From Candidatus Hennigella equi (lineage in GTDB: Bacteria > Bacillota_I > Bacilli_A > Mycoplasmatales > Mycoplasmoidaceae), in assembly GCA_018064845.1 (NCBI GenBank), contig JAGHUK010000027.1:1-44291 (forward strand): a stretch of DNA of 44,291 nt. The letters run 5' to 3'. Positions 8,974 through 36,813 of this stretch are shown piece after piece; the first letter of the stretch is position 1, and every line of letters begins with the position of its first letter. The notes under the pieces were generated by a model. The model made no database searches. It was not told where the DNA came from and saw nothing but the letters and a program-made list of their open reading frames with translations. A program made the translations under genes and the position numbers.

Positions 8974-9005
8974 AATATAAATTTTTATTTATAAAAATTT
9001 ATATT
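8974..9005. repeat. Perfect AT-only inverted repeat, 15-bp arms
   Basis: AATATAAATTTTTAT and its exact reverse complement are separated by TT. It lies between the divergent ppa promoter and the promoter at 9012. It could be an operator, a cruciform, or a weak terminator for minus-strand RNA. It contains no GC pairs. Confidence 0.7.
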
Positions 9006-9011
9006 ATGTTG

Positions 9012-9017
9012 TATAAT
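9012..9017 (+). promoter_or_regulatory. -10 box of the structured RNA
   Basis: TATAAT with a TG two bases upstream (TTGTATAAT); the start is expected near 9024. No long plus-strand gene follows before the terminator at 9227. Confidence 0.65.
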
Positions 9018-9101
9018 TTAACTAGATATACGATTACACCAAATTCTGGGTGTTATCACCCAGAAGGAGGTGTACATAATCATATATCTCAACCACGGAG
9101 A

Positions 9102-9155
9102 ATGTTTGAAAAGGTAATCATTATCTTATTCTTACTACTTCTAATAGTAAGATAG
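9102..9155 (+). CDS. Possible 17-residue hydrophobic peptide (type I toxin-like)
   Basis: Within the structured RNA an ATG opens a frame for MFEKVIIILFLLLLIVR and then TAG. A short charged start, twelve consecutive hydrophobic residues and a final Arg resemble very small membrane-acting type I toxins such as Ibs. The evidence for translation is mixed: GGAG sits only 1 nt before the ATG, and a strong AAGGAGG lies 31 nt upstream inside a hairpin. The ORF also overlaps the stem GTTTGAA/TTCAAAC, so it may simply be part of the RNA fold. Confidence 0.3.
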   Translation: MFEKVIIILFLLLLIVR

Positions 9156-9226
9156 ACTAGTGTTAGTCATTCAAACGCCTCCTTGACACCATAAGCGATT
9201 ATGGGAAATGGCCAAAAGTCTAAAAG

Positions 9227-9256
9227 AAAAGAAGCAGGTCGAACTGCTTCTTTTTA
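9227..9256. terminator. Strong terminator of the structured RNA, probably bidirectional
   Basis: AAAAGAAGCAG, loop GTCGAA, CTGCTTCTTTT, then Ts. On the minus strand the same stem is followed by CTTTTCTTTTAG, so a short RNA from the promoter at 9289-9294 could also end here. Confidence 0.85.
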
Positions 9257-9288
9257 GTTTGGCGTACTAACCAATATATCTCGCATTT

Positions 9289-9294
9289 ATTATA
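9289..9294 (-). promoter_or_regulatory. -10 box facing the structured RNA (possible short antisense RNA)
   Basis: A minus-strand TATAAT with no gene directly downstream. RNA starting near 9282 would be antisense to the 3' end of the 9024-9256 transcript and could stop at the shared hairpin, giving roughly 60 nt. This convergent, 3'-overlapping layout is known from Gram-positive type I toxin-antitoxin pairs. The -10 box is clear; transcription is inferred. Confidence 0.4.
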
Positions 9295-9301
9295 CATAAA
9301 A

Positions 9302-9333
9302 AAATAAAAAACTAGGCACGAAACCTAGTTTTG
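9302..9333 (-). terminator. Terminator of the 9325-9792 gene; copy 1 of a 32-bp direct repeat
   Basis: AAAACTAGG, 7-nt loop, CCTAGTTTT, with the T run on the minus strand. The stop codon of the gene lies inside the stem. The same 32 bp recur at 18703-18734 with three changes, all in the loop. Confidence 0.85.
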
Positions 9334-9792
9334 TTTATTAGCTTTTCTAGCTTTGCCATATGCAATATGTTTGAAGATACCAGAAATAATAGCTAAATAT
9401 AAGGCCACAAGTCCGGCAATCAAATTCATGATGCAGCCTACATTTCTACTATCTTTATCTTTTAAAATTACTAGAATTGAGACAAACATTAATACAGCCG
9501 AGATAACGTGTGCTGGTAAAGCAAACAATAAGAATTTCTTTTGTTTTTCTTTACAAACTTTTACATATGTAAAGATACTGCACACAGTCATAGCTATTAA
9601 TAATCCGACACAAATTACAAACATTGTGCCAACATACCAAACACTAAATATAGTTAGGATTGCATCTTCTGGATGACGCACTAAACCTAAATATTCTAAT
9701 AGTGTTAAGAACAATACTGCTCCAGAATATGATCCAGCAATTGAAGCAAAATATTTTAAGCTTCTTCCTGCTGGTGTTACAGTTAATTTCAT
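9325..9792 (-). CDS. Hypothetical four-helix membrane protein
   Basis: A 155-residue protein with four hydrophobic segments at about residues 14-36, 45-72, 86-108 and 117-138, and a short Lys-rich C-terminus (GKARKANKQN). No family is recognised. It has its own promoter (TATAAT at 9825-9830), the ribosome site GAGGGG and its own terminator, so it is a single-gene unit. Four helices and a basic tail fit a small integral membrane protein of unknown role. The surface-protein operon starts divergently from it about 120 bp away. Confidence 0.7.
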   Translation of the reverse strand: MKLTVTPAGRSLKYFASIAGSYSGAVLFLTLLEYLGLVRHPEDAILTIFSVWYVGTMFVICVGLLIAMTVCSIFTYVKVCKEKQKKFLLFALPAHVISAVLMFVSILVILKDKDSRNVGCIMNLIAGLVALYLAIISGIFKHIAYGKARKANKQN

Positions 9793-9902: not shown

Positions 9903-9908
9903 TATAAT
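9903..9908 (+). promoter_or_regulatory. -10 box of the surface-protein operon (predicted leaderless)
   Basis: TATAAT, then TATTTT, then the ATG at 9915: exactly 6 nt. TTTGAT, 16 bp upstream of the -10 box, can serve as a -35 element. The first gene has no ribosome site, whereas all three later genes of the operon have one. Confidence 0.65.
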
Positions 9909-9914
9909 TATTTT

Positions 9915-12332
9915 ATGAAGAACAAATTTTTTAAGAAGTCATTTTGACTAGTAGGATCATCAGCTTTGGTCACTGCATCTGTTGTGGCCCCAACACTAAC
10001 ATTAACTTCGTGTAGTAAAATTAAAGGTTTTATGATAGATGATACCGATGAGGAAACCGGTATCTCTTCAGTAACTTATGAAACAATGAAGAAAGAGTTT
10101 AGAGATTTATACATCAATCATCTAAAAAAACACGAATTTTTGTCAGATATTGAAATTAAAGAAAAACTCGTTTTCTTTGATGATTACATTTCGAATTTTG
10201 ATGAAATGCTAGCTAAAAATGATGGAGCAGTAATGGATTATACAGCTGCTACTATGGCATTATCTGAAACAGCTTCAGAAAAATATGGAATTAGACTAAA
10301 TCGTCGTTCTAATGTTACCTGAAGTGATTTTGTTGAACAATATAAAGGATTGAGACAATCGACATTTGTTTATATGACAAACCAAGGTCTTTTTCCTCAA
10401 GAGATTCAACAAATATTAAATGATGGAGACGCTAGATTTAATGATTTAGTAACAACATTATCTAGAGAGTATGCTCATGACCCATTACTAGGTATTACAA
10501 AGGCTCAAAACAAATTATTGGATGTATTTAGTGCTAACAACCGTGAAGTAGCGTTAGTTGCTTCTATGAATAGATTAGCTGATTTCACCAATCGTTACAC
10601 ATTTCAATTTAATGAAGATAGCCCAATATATTACGATACATTACGTGATCCAACAAAATATCCTGATTTAAAAGTAGGAAGTCCAATTGACCCAGGTATT
10701 ATGAATACGGTCTTTACTTGTATTGACCAACAAACAGGAACACCTACTGATTTTGACCCTACTAAATCAATGCCAACTTTTATTATTACTCCTTATCTTC
10801 ATGGATGATATGAAGATAAATATAGTAATCAATATGGAATGGAAATAGATTGGCAAATCTATCCATCTATTTATTGAACAGAACCTTCGCTACGTACTTA
10901 CATACCTGAGGTAACTGCTCATGTTTATGGACGTAATGACAAAATAGCAAATCGTGAAATTGAAGAAGATTCTAAAGATCCAGATTATTTTGTTAAAACA
11001 ATTCATGAATCTGAAATTCAAACAACAAGATATATGCTTCAAGCTTCTGCAAGGTATGAAAGAGAGAATCTTGTTAATGCATATTTTAATAAAGACGAAG
11101 ATAAAACAAGAAGCCGCATTTATTTAAAGTGAGAAGGTGGAGCAGGAAACAAACGTAATAAATATGAATGTTTCTTTGATGGTATACCTCAAGGTGAAGA
11201 TGAAGGATTATTATCTGTTAACTCATTAGCCAACTCTGGCTTAAGAATATCATCTAATGATATTACTTATGAAGATTTAAAAACTGTTATTAAGCGTGTA
11301 GAAAAGGACAAACAAGATCCTGAAAATGCTACGCCTGATGAAAAATTACCACTTACTGATAAGTTTATTAAGTATTGTACTGTTCAATCTGCTGTTGTGT
11401 CAGAAGATGGACAATATGGTACAGGCCATAAAGTTCGTCACAAATTCTTTTATCAATATGCAAACTCTGTTAAAGGTGATACATCTATTGTTAATGACCC
11501 TGATTATTCAGAACCAAGAAGATCGGATGGTTTTAATATTTCTGAAGAATTCTTTAATGTTGCTAATGATAAATACAATGATGCATTTAAATTATTTAGA
11601 CACTATAAAAACAATGATTTCGTTGCAATAAAAGAAAATTGTAATGATCTAGAAGCAGGGTTCGTATCAACATCAGTAATGACTGGTGTACAAATCGCTA
11701 AAAATGTTATCAAAATGATTTTTGGTGGTATTGCTACTAAATTAATTGCAGCTTACACTATTGCATTGTTAACATCAAATGCTGTTGTTCTAGGAATTAT
11801 TTGACCATTCTATACTCATTATCTAGTAGATCCAATTGACACTTTTGTATCTAATGTAAAAAAATTAAGAAACGACCCTTCATATAAATCAATTCAAAAT
11901 CGTTTGGAAGAAGACAGCCAATACTTTGTTACTGTTGATGAGGATGGATGATATTCCCAAGATGAGTATGATGCTAAAAAGATAACTTTCCAAACATCTA
12001 ACTTTGTAACATTTGCTCGACCAAAATATCAATATTATTCAACAATTATGATTCAAGATGATTTTACTGGATTTAAGGCAGCAGCAAAAAGACTTCATGT
12101 TGACCCAATGGCCTTTAAGAAAGAATTTGGTACATGAATGTACACTGGAACAAGTTATATTGCATGTTATGGTTATGCTGGTATCAGAATGTTGTTAAAT
12201 CAATTAATATTACCAGAATTAAAAACACCTTGATTATTATTCATCGCAGAATTTGCTATTGAAACTCTTTTAGGAATGAATATTACAAAGATATTGCAAG
12301 AAACTGCGTTCAGCTACACATACGAGGAATAG
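9915..12332 (+). CDS. Large lipoprotein of unknown family
   Basis: An 805-residue protein. The N-terminus MKNKFFKKSFWLVGSSALV is followed by a hydrophobic stretch and the lipobox LTSC (Cys near residue 34), so it should be a diacylated lipoprotein on the outer face of the membrane. The body is long, polar and rich in Asp, Asn and Tyr. Two hydrophobic segments occur late (TKLIAAYTIALLTSNAVVLG near residue 615 and the TPWLLFIAEFAIE region near 780), unusual for a plain surface lipoprotein. No known domain is recognised. Numerous TGA codons read as Trp. It is the first gene of a four-gene operon with the two BspA-like proteins and a Big2-like lipoprotein; the TAG stop is 9 nt before the next ATG. 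Confidence 0.8.
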
Positions 12333-12341
12333 GAGTTAATT

Positions 12342-14531
12342 ATGATCAAAGTTGCAAAAATATTAGGTTTATCATTATTATCAACCTCATCATTAACAGC
12401 TGTAGTTGTTCCTGCTATAAATTTAAATATTCATAATGAACAAACCCTTAAGGATATTGAATCTATACCAGTTGACCCCAAATATTTAGATATTGATGAA
12501 AATCATGTTTTGCATGGTTTTACATCTGATGCTACACCGGCTGTTTTTATGTCTAATGGTTACAATCAATTAGTTATTCCAAGCGATGTAGTTGAAATTG
12601 CACCATATGCTTTTGCATATAGATTTGACTATATGTCAAACCTCATTACTTCTGTAGACTTCTCGCAAGCAACAGCCTTAAGAGCTATTGGTGATAGTGC
12701 ATTTAATTATTGCTATGCACTTGAATGTGATCTTGACTTTCAGAATCACCCTAAACTAGCATACATCGGTGCTAGTGCATTCTTTTATTGCACAGGAATA
12801 AAGTCTGTTAAATTCTATGAAGGAGATTTAGATAATCCCCTTGTAATTGAAAATCATGCTTTTGCTAGTTGTGCTAGCTTGGAAGAAATTACGCTACATG
12901 ACAAAATTGATGTTGGTAATAATGCATTTGAAAAATGTATTAAACTAAACAAGATTAATCTTTTTGGTTACGCAAGTCTTCCAACTTGACTGTATTCCTC
13001 TTCTTGAGTTTTTAATCAAGCAGGAACAAAAGCGAGCGTTGAAGAATGTGAAGTTGTAGTAAATTTTGCTAATACATCATATGATACGTGATGTAATGTT
13101 TTATATGATAGACAAAAATTAGTAAATGAAAAATGAAATATAAGATCTAGAAATTCTACTACAAAAGATAGTTTCAATTATGATGAAAATGGCGCAATTA
13201 CAGGATTAAAATCTGGAGTAACTATTGATGCCCTATTTATTCCTGAAGATGTAACAAAAATTCTTCCTAATGCATTCCAAAATGATTCTAGATTAAATAA
13301 AAAGGATGATAAGATCCCATTAATTTTACATAATAAAATACAAGCAATAGGTTCAAGTGCTTTTGAAGGCTGTGTAGGATTATATGGTCCATTAAATTTA
13401 CCAGTTCAATTAAAAGAATTAGGAGAATATGCTTTTAAGGATTGTAGACAATTATCTGGACATGTAACTATTCCTTTTGGTATAACTACTATTTCTAAAG
13501 GAACGTTTGAAGGTTCTGGAATTAGTGGTGTAAAATTTCATAGTGAAGTGGCAGATCTTAAAGCTCGTGCATTTGCTAATTGTAGACATCTATCTTGAAT
13601 TGATGTTAGTTGTTTTGATTTTGGTCGTCCAAGTTGAGAACCACAATCAAAAGAATCAGACCAACCATTTTATGGTTTAAATTCTAATGGTTCAATAATT
13701 CTATTCAATTATGTTTCTGATCCTGCTGGTTTTAAGGAAGGATGATGTTCAAGAATGATATCATTGGGAATGAACCAATCTCAAATTAGTAAAACTGGTG
13801 ATGATGTTAAGCAATGAACATTCCATTTTAACACAGCAATATCTACAAACGCTTTACCAGACAATGCATTCAATAGTATTGATAAGCAACACATTATGGG
13901 CCTAAAGAGTAAATTTGATTCTAGTGATGTATTAAAACAATATGGTCAAATTAATTTACCAAGTACGACAGTTGCTGTTGAAAAGGAAGCATTAAAAGAA
14001 AAGTTTATAAAAGAAGATGCCGAATGAACCTTATCAATTAATGAAGGTTTAACAGCAATTGAAGAATCCGGTTTTGAAGGCAACACAGGAATTTATGGTG
14101 ATATATCTATTCCAGCCACTTTGACTAACATTAAAGACAATGCCTTTAAAAATTGTTCAAACCTACAAGGAACATTAAACTTTAATGTTATTCCTAAATC
14201 ACATTTAGGAATGACAATTGGTGATGGCGCATTTGTTGGTACAAACTTTAGTCGTATAGTTATGCCTCATATATTTGGTGATGGTGGAATGAAATTTGGT
14301 GAAGGTACTGCTTTCTACATCACATCTACAACAAAAATTATTGATTTTACTACTACGACTTTTTCTGAAGGTGGATCGTTACCAATGACACCTTGAATTA
14401 AGTTTGATTCAAACTCATCTGGAACCATATTAGTATCCACTTTAGCACAAAGAACTATTGTTTCACTTTATCTTACATTGATATCTAGTGATTGAAATTC
14501 AGAAAAATGACCTGTTGTGAGCGAGGAGTAA
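12342..14531 (+). CDS. BspA-like leucine-rich-repeat surface protein
   Basis: A 729-residue secreted protein. The signal peptide (MIKVAKILGLSLLSTSSL, then AVVVPA) has no Cys, so this is not a lipoprotein. The body is built of BspA/LRR_5-type repeats of the form AFxxCxxLxxIxL, for example SAFNYCYALE, SAFFYCTGIKSV, HAFASCASLEEITL, SAFEGCVGLYGPL and NAFKNCSNLQG. Repeats fill about residues 80-210 and 300-720, with a non-repeat stretch between. Proteins of this class bind host matrix or cells in oral and mucosal microbes; that role here is inferred. The ribosome site is AGGAG, and the gene sits between the large lipoprotein and the Big2-like protein. Repeats make it a candidate for slippage or recombination. 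Confidence 0.88.
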
Positions 14532-14535
14532 TGGT

Positions 14536-15864
14536 ATGAAAAAAATATTAAATAAATTATTAGCTCCTGTAGTTGTTACTTCTTTAGTTGTTCCAACTAT
14601 ATGTATTAGTACAACATCTTGTGCTAATAATCACGTAGAGATACAAAGCATCAAATTATCATCTAGATATTCTTATATTTATCCAGGTGAGGAACTAAAG
14701 ATAAAAGCTAAAGTTTATCCTTCTGCTGCATCAGAAGATGACTTAATTTGAGAAATTAATGAATCTTCTATTCCTGGATTTACAATTTCTGACAATGGAA
14801 AATTGTGTGCTCCTGAAGAGTATCCAGACAATAACTCTGTTTCTATAACAATTAAAGCTACATCAAAAACAAATCCTAATGTTTTTGCTTTATATTCTGT
14901 TTTAGCAACAACTGATACTGAGCACGAATTTTTAGGTTTTGCTGGTGGAGTTAATTATTTGGGTCGTGATGGTTCAGTTCAAACTAGAGCAATATTAAAT
15001 GAAAATGTTAATCTATATGGTTACGATATGAGAATGTATTATCTTGAAGATACATACTGAACTGTTGATGATGAACACCCTTTAGCTGACCAAGATGGTA
15101 TTAACCTTTATGCTGGGCGTTCAGGAGAATATGTTGATTTCCGCCCTGTTTTCAAGACAGGTGATGATGTGGGAATGGAATTCTTTTTGCTAAATTCATA
15201 TGGTTACGACACAGAATACAATTGTTGTTCATGAGTTGGATATTCTGATGGAACTGTAACAGACCAAATCCCTCAATTTCAAACAAACACACCAGTTTAC
15301 AGAAAACAAATAATGGAAGTAAATTTTACTGCTGATGAATATGTTGTATTTAGAATTGTTTGTGATGTATATCAAAATACAAATCTTAATACAGCTGCAA
15401 TTTTTGGATACAATCCTGACCCAGAAGGAACACAATCTGAAGACGAACATAGCATAATTCCTTATGAAGATGGTGTTTATCAAACACAAATCTTATGTCC
15501 ATTATCTGGTTATGATGTTGCCAAACAAAAAAGAATTTCAGATATTTATTTATATCGTAAACCTTATGAAGATATTGATGAAACATTAAAAGCTAGATGA
15601 GAACCAAATGAAGATGCTCCAGACATTTTTACTAAAAATGGTAAACCAGCATTTACAGAATTAGACTTTGATCATCATTTACCAGGATTTGATGAATATC
15701 AAATTGCAAAATTTAGTGCAACTTATACAGTTGACCCCGCAAAACTAGTAGGAATGGATTATGACAATTATTTAATAGGAACATATTTCTGCTACGATGT
15801 TCTAGACACTAATTGAGAAGCTCCAGTCGCTAGACTAGACTTTGTAGTGCAATGAATAATATAG
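14536..15864 (+). CDS. Lipoprotein with N-terminal Big2 (Ig-like) domain
   Basis: A 442-residue protein. The signal ends in the lipobox TTSC (Cys near residue 29). Residues of about 33-120 look like a bacterial Ig-like Big2 domain: IQSIKLSSRYSYIYPGEELK, then KVYPSAASEDDLIWEI, then an alanine-rich strand with IKATSKTN. The rest is acidic and beta-rich (many Tyr, Asp, Val) with no recognised family. Big2 domains occur in adhesins, so a host-contact role is plausible but unproven. The start is 4 nt after the previous stop with GAGGAG as ribosome site, and the next gene follows after 10 nt. Confidence 0.8.
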
Positions 15865-15874
15865 GAGGGCAAGC

Positions 15875-17269
15875 ATGAAAAAGAATTGATTAAAATGATG
15901 TTTAGCACCAATTATCATAACTCCAACCATGGTTCTTCCAATGGCTAGTTGCTCTCTTGTTAATAATTTGATTAAAAGAGCAAGACAAATCGATGGAACC
16001 GACTGAATTGGTAGATCAACAGGAATGTTTGAAAATGAAGATGACTATCAAGTTAATGAACAAGACAAAACAGTCACATATTGAAATATGGATGAATTGA
16101 AAGCACATGATCTTGTTGTTCCTAATTATGTACTATGAAAAGGTGAAAAATATAAAGTATTACTTGATCACAGCGCTTTCAAAAATTGCGGTAATTTAAT
16201 TTCTGGAACAATCGAATTAAATGACTTTTGTACTAGTATACCTAATTCATTTTTCAAAAATGACAACAAAATCACTACAGTTATTTTGCACAATTATCCA
16301 GAAGAAATTGGACAATTTGCATTCTTGAACTGTAGTGCATTAGAAAACATTTTTGTAAGAAATGGTTCAAAACTAGATCCATATTGAGCATTAAAAACTA
16401 AAGCAATTAAAGCTAGTGCCTTTGATAGTTGTTCATTATCTGGCAAATTGTTATTAGGTCCAGAGCTAACCGAATTAGGTCCTAGAGCATTTATTAATTG
16501 TTGACGTTTAACTAATGTTGACCTTTCTTTAGCTACATCATTAACAGAAATCGGTGAATCAGCTTTTGCAAGCTGTGGTGAATTAGAGCAAGTTACATTA
16601 TCAACTGGACTGAATTATGAATATTGGTTCACACCTGACCCAACAGTTAAAGGATTCATCCACGATTCTGCCTTTGCAAATTGTTTTTCTTTAAAAACTG
16701 TTATATTACCTGAACAAGATATGACACTCCATTTAGGAAACTATGTCTTTTCTCAATGTGATAGTTTTAGAGGATTTACATATCGTGGTTTGCCTACGCC
16801 TTTAAGATTAACAATTGCTCATGCTGGCAGGGGCTGTTTTGCAAATTGCATTTCCTTAGAGAAAAAGGATTATCTTAATATCTTTTATGATTACATCGAA
16901 TCAGCATATTTACCATCAGTATTTGAAGGCTGTGCATTTACAAGTTGGAAATTTGATCCTAATTTGGTTGATTCACTTGGAGATTATGCTTTTGCCTTTA
17001 ATCAAAATTTAACATTGTTAGATTTTACATCTATATCATTAGGAGCACATGTACCTGATTATTGAAATTGGGAATGGCTTAATGTTGATCCTGTTGAAGA
17101 TGTATTTGCATATGGTAACAAATTCGGTGTAATAAAAGTTCGCAGTGGTTTTGTGGGATCTTCAACGTTTAGCGAATGAGTTAATTGATTTGAAAACCAA
17201 GGGCTAACATTTAAGCCAACTGATTACACTACACCATCATTAGATAACTGATCATTTAGTGAAGTATAA
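15875..17269 (+). CDS. BspA-like leucine-rich-repeat lipoprotein
   Basis: A 464-residue protein. The signal MKKNWLKWCLAPIIITPTM is followed by the lipobox MASC (Cys near residue 26), so unlike the BspA-like protein at 12342 this one should be lipid-anchored. LRR_5/BspA repeats run from about residue 100 to 400: SAFKNCGNLISGTIEL, FAFLNCSALENI, SAFDSCSLSGKL, AFINCWRLTNVDLS, SAFASCGELEQVTL, SAFANCFSLKTVIL. The C-terminus is Trp-rich, from TGA codons. The ribosome site is GGAGGG. It is the last gene of the operon and ends at a strong terminator shared with the convergent lipoprotein gene. Confidence 0.88.
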
Positions 17270-18663: not shown

Positions 18664-18669
18664 AGATAA

Positions 18670-18675
18670 ATTATA
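18670..18675 (-). promoter_or_regulatory. -10 box of the 18067-18663 gene (predicted leaderless)
   Basis: Minus strand TATAAT, then TTATCT, then ATG: 6 nt and no ribosome site. Confidence 0.6.
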
Positions 18676-19250: not shown

Positions 19251-19256
19251 TATAAT
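19251..19256 (+). promoter_or_regulatory. -10 box of udk-tkt-engB-valS (predicted leaderless)
   Basis: TATAAT, then 7 nt (TTTTAAT), then the udk ATG, leaving no room for a ribosome site. Confidence 0.6.
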
Positions 19257-19263
19257 TTTTAAT

Positions 19264-29541: not shown

Positions 29542-29551
29542 AATATTAATT

Positions 29552-29561
29552 ATTATATAAT
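29552..29561. promoter_or_regulatory. Shared palindromic -10 region for lspA and the 29571 gene
   Basis: ATTATATAAT reads TATAAT on both strands, offset by 4 bp. It is 9 nt from the plus-strand ATG and 10 nt from the lspA ATG, so both RNAs would have leaders of only 2-4 nt. The two polymerases cannot occupy it together. Confidence 0.6.
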
Positions 29562-29570
29562 TTATACATT

Positions 29571-35828: not shown

Positions 35829-36764
35829 ATGAAAAAACAAAAAGTTCAATTAACACAAGAAGAAAGAATTAAAGCATATTTCAAAGCGACCGGTTCTAAG
35901 AAAGTTGCAGCATGAGCAAAGCTTACGAAAGAAGATCGTAAACTTTATAAGAAAATGCAAAAACAACACGAAAAAGAACTAGTAGGTAAGAAACTAGACT
36001 TTAATTCTCGTAAGAACTCTTACGAAGTAAGAGACTGAAGCTTGTGATATGGAAAACAAAGGGGATTAAGACATATTACTGTTGACATTGAAAAGAATAA
36101 GGTAACTAGTTTAATTGGTCCTAACGGTGCAGGTAAAACTGTTTTCTTAAGATGTTTAAACAGAATGAATAGTGTAATGTTTTCTAATGTTAAAACATTA
36201 GGTAACATCTATTTCTTTAATGGAACAAACTTATACTCACCAAACATTCCTCAAGTTGAAATTACAACAAGAGTTGGAACTATTCAACAAAAACCAACTC
36301 CATTCCCTATGAGCATTTATGATAATGTTGCATATGGACCAAGATTACATGGTATTACAGATAAAAAAGTCTTAGACAAAATAGTGCATGATGCTCTTGA
36401 TGATGCAGCATTATGATCTGAAGTTAAAGACAAACTTGCCGATTACGGAACAAGTTTATCTGGTGGTCAACAACAACGTTTATGTATTGCTAGAGCAATC
36501 GCTTTAAAACCAGAAGTATTATTAATGGATCAACCAACTTCTGCGCTTGACCCAATTGCTGCAAATAAGATTGAAAACTTAATTCTTACACTTAAACGTA
36601 AATATACAATTGTGCTTGTAACTCACTCATTGTCTCAAGCACAAAGAGTGTCTGACAACACATTCTTCTTTTATAAGGGAAGAATAGTTGAAGCGGGGCC
36701 TACAAGAAAGATCTTTACAGACCCTCAACAAAAGAAAACAAAAGATTATATCTTGGGTAGATAA
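35829..36764 (+). CDS. pstB: Phosphate ABC transporter ATP-binding protein
   Basis: PstB powers phosphate uptake through PstCA. The 311-residue product has a 75-residue N-terminal extension rich in Lys before the ABC domain. The Walker A is GPNGAGKT near residue 99, the Q-loop [19 protein letters not shown], the signature LSGGQQQR near residue 212, and the Walker [13 protein letters not shown], where the usual catalytic Glu reads Gln (MDQP in place of MDEP), then the switch His in THSLSQAQ. The Gln at that site should slow ATP hydrolysis unless compensated; it deserves checking. It is co-transcribed with pstS and pstCA. Confidence 0.93.
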
Positions 36765-36768
36765 TATA

Positions 36769-36774
36769 TATAAT
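36769..36774 (+). promoter_or_regulatory. -10 box before the SemiSWEET gene
   Basis: TATAAT 4 nt after the pstB stop, with an expected leader of about 33 nt containing AAGGAG. It allows the genes from here to coaX to be expressed apart from pst. Confidence 0.5.
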
Positions 36775-36813
36775 ATTTATATTATTTACCCATTAAAAAA
36801 TAAGGAGAAAAAT

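What the first reader, a model, noticed from the sequence alone, without database searches (positions are those of the whole stretch)
9012..9294. Structured RNA locus with hidden 17-residue hydrophobic ORF and convergent promoter
A 400-bp gap between ppa and the next minus-strand gene holds a plus-strand TATAAT, about 235 nt of dense RNA structure and a perfect rho-independent terminator. A minus-strand TATAAT faces the same terminator. The RNA includes nested 5' hairpins, a branched stem, a GCGA tetraloop hairpin and long-range AAGGAGG/CCTCCTT complementarity. Inside it a short frame codes MFEKVIIILFLLLLIVR, much like very small type I toxins. On the minus strand AAGGAGG also sits 7 nt before an ATG (a 9-codon frame). 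The whole is compatible with a type I toxin-antitoxin pair or with an undescribed structured RNA; I cannot place it in SRP, RNase P, tmRNA or 6S.
Basis: partly seen in the sequence, partly recalled or inferred. Interest (0 to 1): 0.75.

Follow-up and report, generated by a model that had tools for sequence, protein, structure and literature searches.

The report
Possible convergent RNA toxin–antitoxin locus
A 300-base gap between two genes of a gut mycoplasma relative holds a strongly folded RNA facing a short antisense RNA across a shared terminator, laid out like the plasmid 'par' toxin–antitoxin systems of other bacteria, although the 17-residue peptide it could encode and its toxicity are unproven.

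Summary
Bases 9024-9256 (+) are the most structured 200-nt stretch of the window (z about -8), with a TATAAT promoter and a bidirectional terminator. No Rfam family matches. RNase P and SRP RNA lie elsewhere in the genome, as probably does tmRNA, so it is not a disguised housekeeping RNA.

New finding: the facing minus-strand TATAAT would drive a ~64-nt RNA into the same terminator. Its 5' end is complementary to 9069-9090 of the plus RNA (22-nt direct repeat 9069-9090/9261-9282; duplex -26.3 kcal/mol). In 604 kb of this genome no other sequence pairs better with it. Convergent promoters, shared terminator, direct repeats, a 5' helix around a Shine-Dalgarno sequence and a hydrophobic mini-ORF (2 of 20,000 shuffles) together reproduce the plan of par(pAD1)-type type I toxin-antitoxin loci.

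Against: the ORF's GGAG is 1 nt from its ATG (5-12 nt in this genome's genes), the Fst motif is absent, and no homologue was found in up to 319 related genomes, so conservation cannot be tested.

Best reading: an orphan, par-like antisense RNA module, probably type I TA (0.45). It works like par; it is not a demonstrated member. An antisense-paired RNA without toxin, or a lone sRNA, remain possible.

The parts
8988..9017 (+). promoter of the plus RNA (TTTATA-18-TATAAT); predicted start at about 9024
   Evidence: intergenic TATAAT in this window mostly sits 7-46 nt before genes
9024..9256 (+). structured plus RNA (toxin mRNA-like), about 233 nt
   Evidence: fold -80.3 kcal/mol, z -8.0; strongest fold of the window
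9024..9090 (+). 5' nested hairpin H1: 5'-terminal helix plus inner stem-loop bordering AAGGAGG
   Evidence: pairing probability above 0.9 for most pairs
9064..9070 (+). strong Shine-Dalgarno AAGGAGG, partly paired in H1; no AUG at working distance, only AUA/AUC codons at 9076-9084
9069..9090 (+). direct repeat copy 1 = target of the minus RNA
   Evidence: the repeat finder D1; duplex -26.3 kcal/mol, 0/2000 shuffles
9102..9155 (+). 17-codon hydrophobic ORF MFEKVIIILFLLLLIVR (putative membrane peptide), start region GGAGAAUG paired with CCUCC
   Evidence: GGAG only 1 nt from ATG
9178..9184 (+). internal anti-Shine-Dalgarno CCUCCUU that pairs with GGAG 9097-9100 (MFE) or AAGGAGG 9064-9070 (alternative)
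9189..9204 (+). GCGA tetraloop hairpin CCATAA-GCGA-TTATGG
9226..9255 (.). shared bidirectional intrinsic terminator, 12-bp stem
9220..9283 (-). predicted short antisense RNA (antitoxin-like), about 64 nt
   Evidence: TATAAT 9294-9289; fold and duplexes
9261..9282 (-). direct repeat copy 2; its complement is the 5' end of the minus RNA
9289..9294 (-). -10 box TATAAT of the minus RNA

Best explanation
The gap holds an antisense-controlled two-RNA module of the par(pAD1) plan, most likely a chromosomal type I toxin-antitoxin locus. A promoter at 8988-9017 makes a ~233-nt stable RNA. Its 5' helix protects the 5' end and half-hides a strong Shine-Dalgarno sequence (AAGGAGG). The GGAGAAUG start region of a 17-residue hydrophobic peptide is locked by a downstream CCUCC. 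A convergent promoter makes a ~64-nt antisense RNA ending at the same terminator. It can pair at the complementary terminators and, through its 5' end, with 9069-9090 next to the Shine-Dalgarno sequence. That would open H1 and block ribosome entry. If the antisense RNA decays first, translation could start near AAGGAGG and reach AUG 9102 by coupling, because a short frame from 9076 ends at 9117 and overlaps AUG 9102. The peptide would then insert into the membrane. Shown by computation: structure, terminator, repeats and complementarity. Inferred: both transcripts, translation, coupling and toxicity.
For: Fold z -8.0, first of 882 windows. GC is 36% against 12-29% in the neighbouring gaps. The only direct-repeat family in the gap is 9069-9090/9261-9282. 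The minus 5' end pairs with the plus RNA at -26.3 kcal/mol: 0/2000 and 0/1000 shuffles, 0/862 other stretches of the window. It is the best of 7,949 non-self tiles of 604 kb of the genome. Cofolding favours pairing by about 7 kcal even after opening H1. Among 225 bidirectional-terminator-like hairpins in 2.3 Mb of six related genomes, this is the only one with convergent TATAAT, no overlapping ORF and strong 5' complementarity. The hydrophobic ORF occurs in 2/20,000 shuffles. IbsC stays toxic when cut to 15 residues with at least 10 hydrophobic (PMC8309996); this peptide has 17 with 14 FLIVM. The layout matches RNA I (~230 nt) and RNA II of par(pAD1) (PMC7472228).
Against: The ORF's GGAG is 1 nt from ATG; genes of this window use 5-12 nt. 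AAGGAGG has no AUG, GUG or UUG at working distance. No homologue in 58 relatives, 95 family members or 319 other genomes of the order, and no 49-aa frame relative, so there is no covariation and no test of selection on codons. No Pfam or NCBIfam match. The gapped direct-repeat alignment taken alone is weak (103/5000 shuffles). Spurious TATAAT is common in AT-rich DNA, and most annotated ncRNAs of M. pneumoniae are regarded as transcriptional noise (PMC12494982). The features were put together after the fact.
Confidence: 0.45

Rival explanations
1. An antisense-controlled structured RNA without toxin: the plus RNA is a regulatory sRNA and the minus RNA titrates or processes it; the hydrophobic frame is accidental.
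For: Structure and complementarity are the strongest signals. The ORF has no usable ribosome-binding site, its start is paired, and pyrimidine-rich stem sequence favours hydrophobic codons.
Against: The ORF is rare by shuffling (2/20,000) and by genome census. AAGGAGG and an internal CCUCCUU imply translation control. No target is known.
Confidence: 0.27
2. A single structured sRNA (lineage-specific regulatory or housekeeping RNA); the minus TATAAT is a spurious promoter.
For: Excellent single-RNA anatomy: promoter, 5' helix, multibranch, GNRA hairpin, terminator. Spurious TATAAT is expected in AT-rich gaps, and antisense noise is usual in mycoplasmas (PMC12494982).
Against: Does not explain why the minus RNA's 5' end finds its best partner in 604 kb in this very RNA, nor the direct repeat. 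RNase P, SRP and a probable tmRNA are elsewhere.
Confidence: 0.2
3. A remnant of a small mobile element with terminal inverted repeats (the promoter-plus-5' regions at 8998-9040 and 9265-9308 are imperfect inverted repeats).
For: Inverted repeat I3 80% over 20 nt; gapped arm alignment is reached by only 89/3000 shuffles.
Against: No second copy of either arm or of the core in 604 kb, no transposase beside it, arms mostly AT-rich.
Confidence: 0.08

Closest known systems
par of plasmid pAD1 (Fst/RNA I-RNA II), Fst/Ldr superfamily
   Same: Convergent promoters; long RNA of about 230 nt and short RNA; shared bidirectional terminator; direct repeats giving a second region of complementarity beside a Shine-Dalgarno sequence; 5' helix and stem-loop; hydrophobic mini-ORF (PMC7472228).
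   Different: Peptide of 17 residues without the PXXXG motif, against 33 in Fst; the repeat ends just before the ATG instead of covering it; chromosomal contig; Mollicute; no sequence similarity.
ibsC/SibC of Escherichia coli
   Same: Toxin of similar size and make-up: IbsC has 19 residues, and 15 with 10 hydrophobic suffice (PMC8309996).
   Different: Sib RNA is antisense over the ibs gene (general knowledge); here the antisense RNA overlaps only the terminator and pairs elsewhere through a repeat.
hok/sok of plasmid R1
   Same: From general knowledge: antisense RNA blocks an overlapping leader frame and thereby the coupled toxin frame; the frame 9076-9117 overlapping AUG 9102 would permit this.
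   Different: The leader frame here would need a non-standard AUA/AUC start; no sequence similarity; different gene order.
MP200 RNA of Mycoplasma pneumoniae
   Same: Small mycoplasma RNA with a ~29-residue frame (mp200 peptide mentioned in PMC12494982).
   Different: No sequence link was tested; no antisense partner known to me.

Membership tests
par(pAD1)/Fst type I TA | convergent promoters | tested here: met
   TATAAT + 9012-9017 and - 9294-9289; transcripts not shown
par(pAD1)/Fst type I TA | shared bidirectional intrinsic terminator | tested here: met
   12-bp stem 9226-9255 with T-rich tails on both strands
par(pAD1)/Fst type I TA | direct repeats that make the two RNAs complementary | tested here: met
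   9069-9090/9261-9282; -26.3 kcal/mol, best of 7,949 non-self tiles
par(pAD1)/Fst type I TA | repeats cover the toxin's Shine-Dalgarno sequence and start codon | tested here: not met
   the repeat touches AAGGAGG 9064-9070 but ends at 9090, before ATG 9102
par(pAD1)/Fst type I TA | Fst-like peptide with PXXXG motif | tested here: not met
   MFEKVIIILFLLLLIVR lacks it; longer frames containing it have no Pfam or NCBIfam match
type I toxin-antitoxin (general) | small hydrophobic membrane peptide encoded | tested here: inconclusive
   ORF present and rare by chance, but ribosome-binding-site spacing is wrong
type I toxin-antitoxin (general) | toxicity relieved by the antisense RNA | not testable with these tools
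   needs expression experiments
Rfam housekeeping RNAs (RNase P, SRP, tmRNA, 6S) | match to the covariance model | tested here: not met
   no gathering hit in the gap and no such family at E<=10; RNase P at C37, SRP at C36, weak tmRNA at C20

The most novel reading that the evidence does not exclude
A type I toxin-antitoxin locus of par architecture has arisen in, or reached, a Mollicute chromosome with an unrelated 17-residue toxin, whose translation is gated by an internal anti-Shine-Dalgarno and by coupling to a leader frame that the antisense RNA blocks.
Probability: 0.3. Interest if true: 0.7.

Novelty: new variant of a known kind. Interest (0 to 1): 0.5.

Why it matters
My literature searches turned up no paper describing a type I toxin-antitoxin system in Mollicutes; the library is limited. 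These are wall-less, genome-reduced bacteria, where a membrane-active peptide and a maintained antisense pair would be unexpected. If confirmed, the locus would show the par layout recurring with an unrelated peptide, so that such loci can be sought by architecture (convergent promoters, shared terminator, direct repeats) where toxin sequence similarity fails. It would also be a structured RNA outside all Rfam families.

Tried and rejected
Rfam at gathering and E<=10: only chance-level hits. RNase P, SRP and tmRNA disguises rejected. Homologues by blastn, by single-sequence covariance model and by 49-aa frame in relatives, genus, family and order: none; the weak hits read were AT-rich stretches or coding DNA. 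Phage, plasmid and viral contig searches: none. Synteny upstream of ppa in relatives and in 46 fetched ppa loci: not conserved, no RNA found. The DUF3800-I hit on the minus strand (E 0.45) is judged chance, driven by the terminator hairpin. Mobile element: no further copies. ppa leader on the minus strand: ppa has its own TATAAT 20 nt before its start and a GAGG Shine-Dalgarno, so the 9-codon minus frame is probably not part of a ppa leader. 49-aa extension of the ORF from ATG 9006: starts upstream of the predicted transcript start, no relatives.

Full report
WHERE IT IS. The window is contig C17 of a 636-kb, 46-contig draft Mollicute genome (82% complete, TGA read as Trp). Ruminant-gut 'Ureaplasma' and Mycoplasmataceae assemblies are its relatives: the best ppa match, RUG11194, is 76% identical, and its contig (CACXEQ010000011.1) has the same length as contig C11 of same-genus genome G003, so the two appear to be the same genome. 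The feature lies in the 399-bp gap between ppa (minus, start 8925) and a 155-aa membrane protein gene without family (minus, 9792-9325).

THE RNA IS REAL BY COMPUTATION. 9022-9256 folds at -80.3 kcal/mol; 200 shuffles average -43.9 +/- 4.5, z -8.0. In a scan of 882 windows on both strands it is the strongest of the contig, stronger than windows with tRNAs. GC is 36% in gaps that otherwise run 12-29%. TATAAT is depleted in the contig (37 against 83 expected), and intergenic copies mostly sit just before genes. The + copy at 9012-9017 puts the transcript start where the 5' helix begins. A 12-bp terminator closes it. No Rfam family fits. RNase P, SRP and a probable tmRNA (below its Rfam cut-off) are on other contigs.

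THE SECOND RNA. The - TATAAT at 9294-9289 faces the same terminator, which has T-rich tails on both sides. The predicted minus RNA (about 9283 to 9220) is ~64 nt. The only direct-repeat family in the gap is 9069-9090/9261-9282. Because the second copy is read in the opposite sense by the minus RNA, its 5' end is complementary to the plus RNA beside AAGGAGG. The duplex is -26.3 kcal/mol; shuffles give -12.2 +/- 2.2 with 0/2000 as good. Among 7,950 tiles covering 604 kb of the genome on both strands, the only better one is its own template. Several differences between the two repeats are tolerated as G-U pairs. After paying for opening H1, cofolding still favours the hybrid by about 7 kcal. The terminator stems add a 37-bp overlap in the cofold.

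THE PEPTIDE. MFEKVIIILFLLLLIVR (9102-9155) has 14 of 17 residues FLIVM, 12 in a row. Such an ORF arises in 2 of 20,000 shuffles of the region, and only 3 small ORFs in 604 kb have a run of 11 or more. IbsC remains toxic at 15 residues with at least 10 hydrophobic (PMC8309996). Its start, GGAGAAUG, is paired with CCUCC (GGAG about 0.99 paired). But GGAG is 1 nt from AUG, while genes here use 5-12 nt, so direct initiation is doubtful. The strong Shine-Dalgarno sequence AAGGAGG (9064) has only AUA/AUC codons at working distance. A frame from 9076 ends with UAA at 9117 and overlaps AUG 9102, which would allow coupling. This is inference.

ARCHITECTURE. Among 225 bidirectional-terminator-like hairpins in 2.3 Mb (own genome and parts of five relatives), five have convergent TATAAT and no overlapping ORF. 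Only this one has long RNAs and strong 5' complementarity (the others -4 to -11 kcal/mol, or too short). The set of features (long RNA of about 230 nt, short RNA, convergent promoters, bidirectional terminator, direct repeats, 5' helix and stem-loop by the Shine-Dalgarno sequence, hydrophobic mini-ORF) is that of par(pAD1) (PMC7472228). Two defining traits are not met: the PXXXG peptide motif, and repeats covering the start codon. It works like par; it is not shown to be a member.

WHAT LIMITS THE CLAIM. No homologue was found by sequence, covariance model or protein in 58 relatives, 95 family genomes and 319 other order genomes (these sets overlap), nor among phages, plasmids or viral contigs. 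Structure and ORF therefore cannot be tested by covariation or codon selection. Single-genome statistics were chosen after seeing the sequence. Promoter matches in AT-rich DNA are weak evidence, and most annotated ncRNAs of M. pneumoniae are regarded as noise (PMC12494982). I put 0.9 on a real structured transcript, 0.65 on a functional antisense pair, and 0.45 on a toxin-antitoxin locus.

Noticed in passing
9006-9155 (+): The hydrophobic frame is open upstream to ATG 9006 (49 codons, MLYNLTRYTITPNSGCYHPEGGVHNHISQPRRMFEK...), but that ATG lies before the predicted transcript start and has no relatives.
   Followed up: partly
9903-9914, 18664-18675, 19251-19263, 29542-29570: Several genes have TATAAT only 7-11 nt before their ATG and no Shine-Dalgarno sequence, suggesting leaderless transcripts alongside genes with clear AAGGAGG-type sites.
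   Followed up: partly
9325-9792 (-): 155-aa predicted membrane protein without Pfam family or relatives in the genus.
   Followed up: partly
12342-17269 (+): Two BspA-type leucine-rich repeat proteins (12342-14531, 15875-17269), near an 805-aa lipoprotein-like protein (9915-12332) without family.
   Followed up: no
36755-36800: Strong AT-rich hairpin (TGGGTA...TACCCA) right after the end of ORF 35829-36764; its window is the next most structured after this locus and the tRNA region (z -6.2).
   Followed up: no
L173 (G000:C20:5545-5844, -): Probable tmRNA below the Rfam cut-off (32.5 bits), near a contig end.
   Followed up: no
own genome against L139-L169: This genome has 89 bidirectional-terminator-like hairpins in 604 kb, while two same-genus assemblies have 1 in 158 kb and 2 in 370 kb, so terminator use seems to differ strongly within the genus.
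   Followed up: partly
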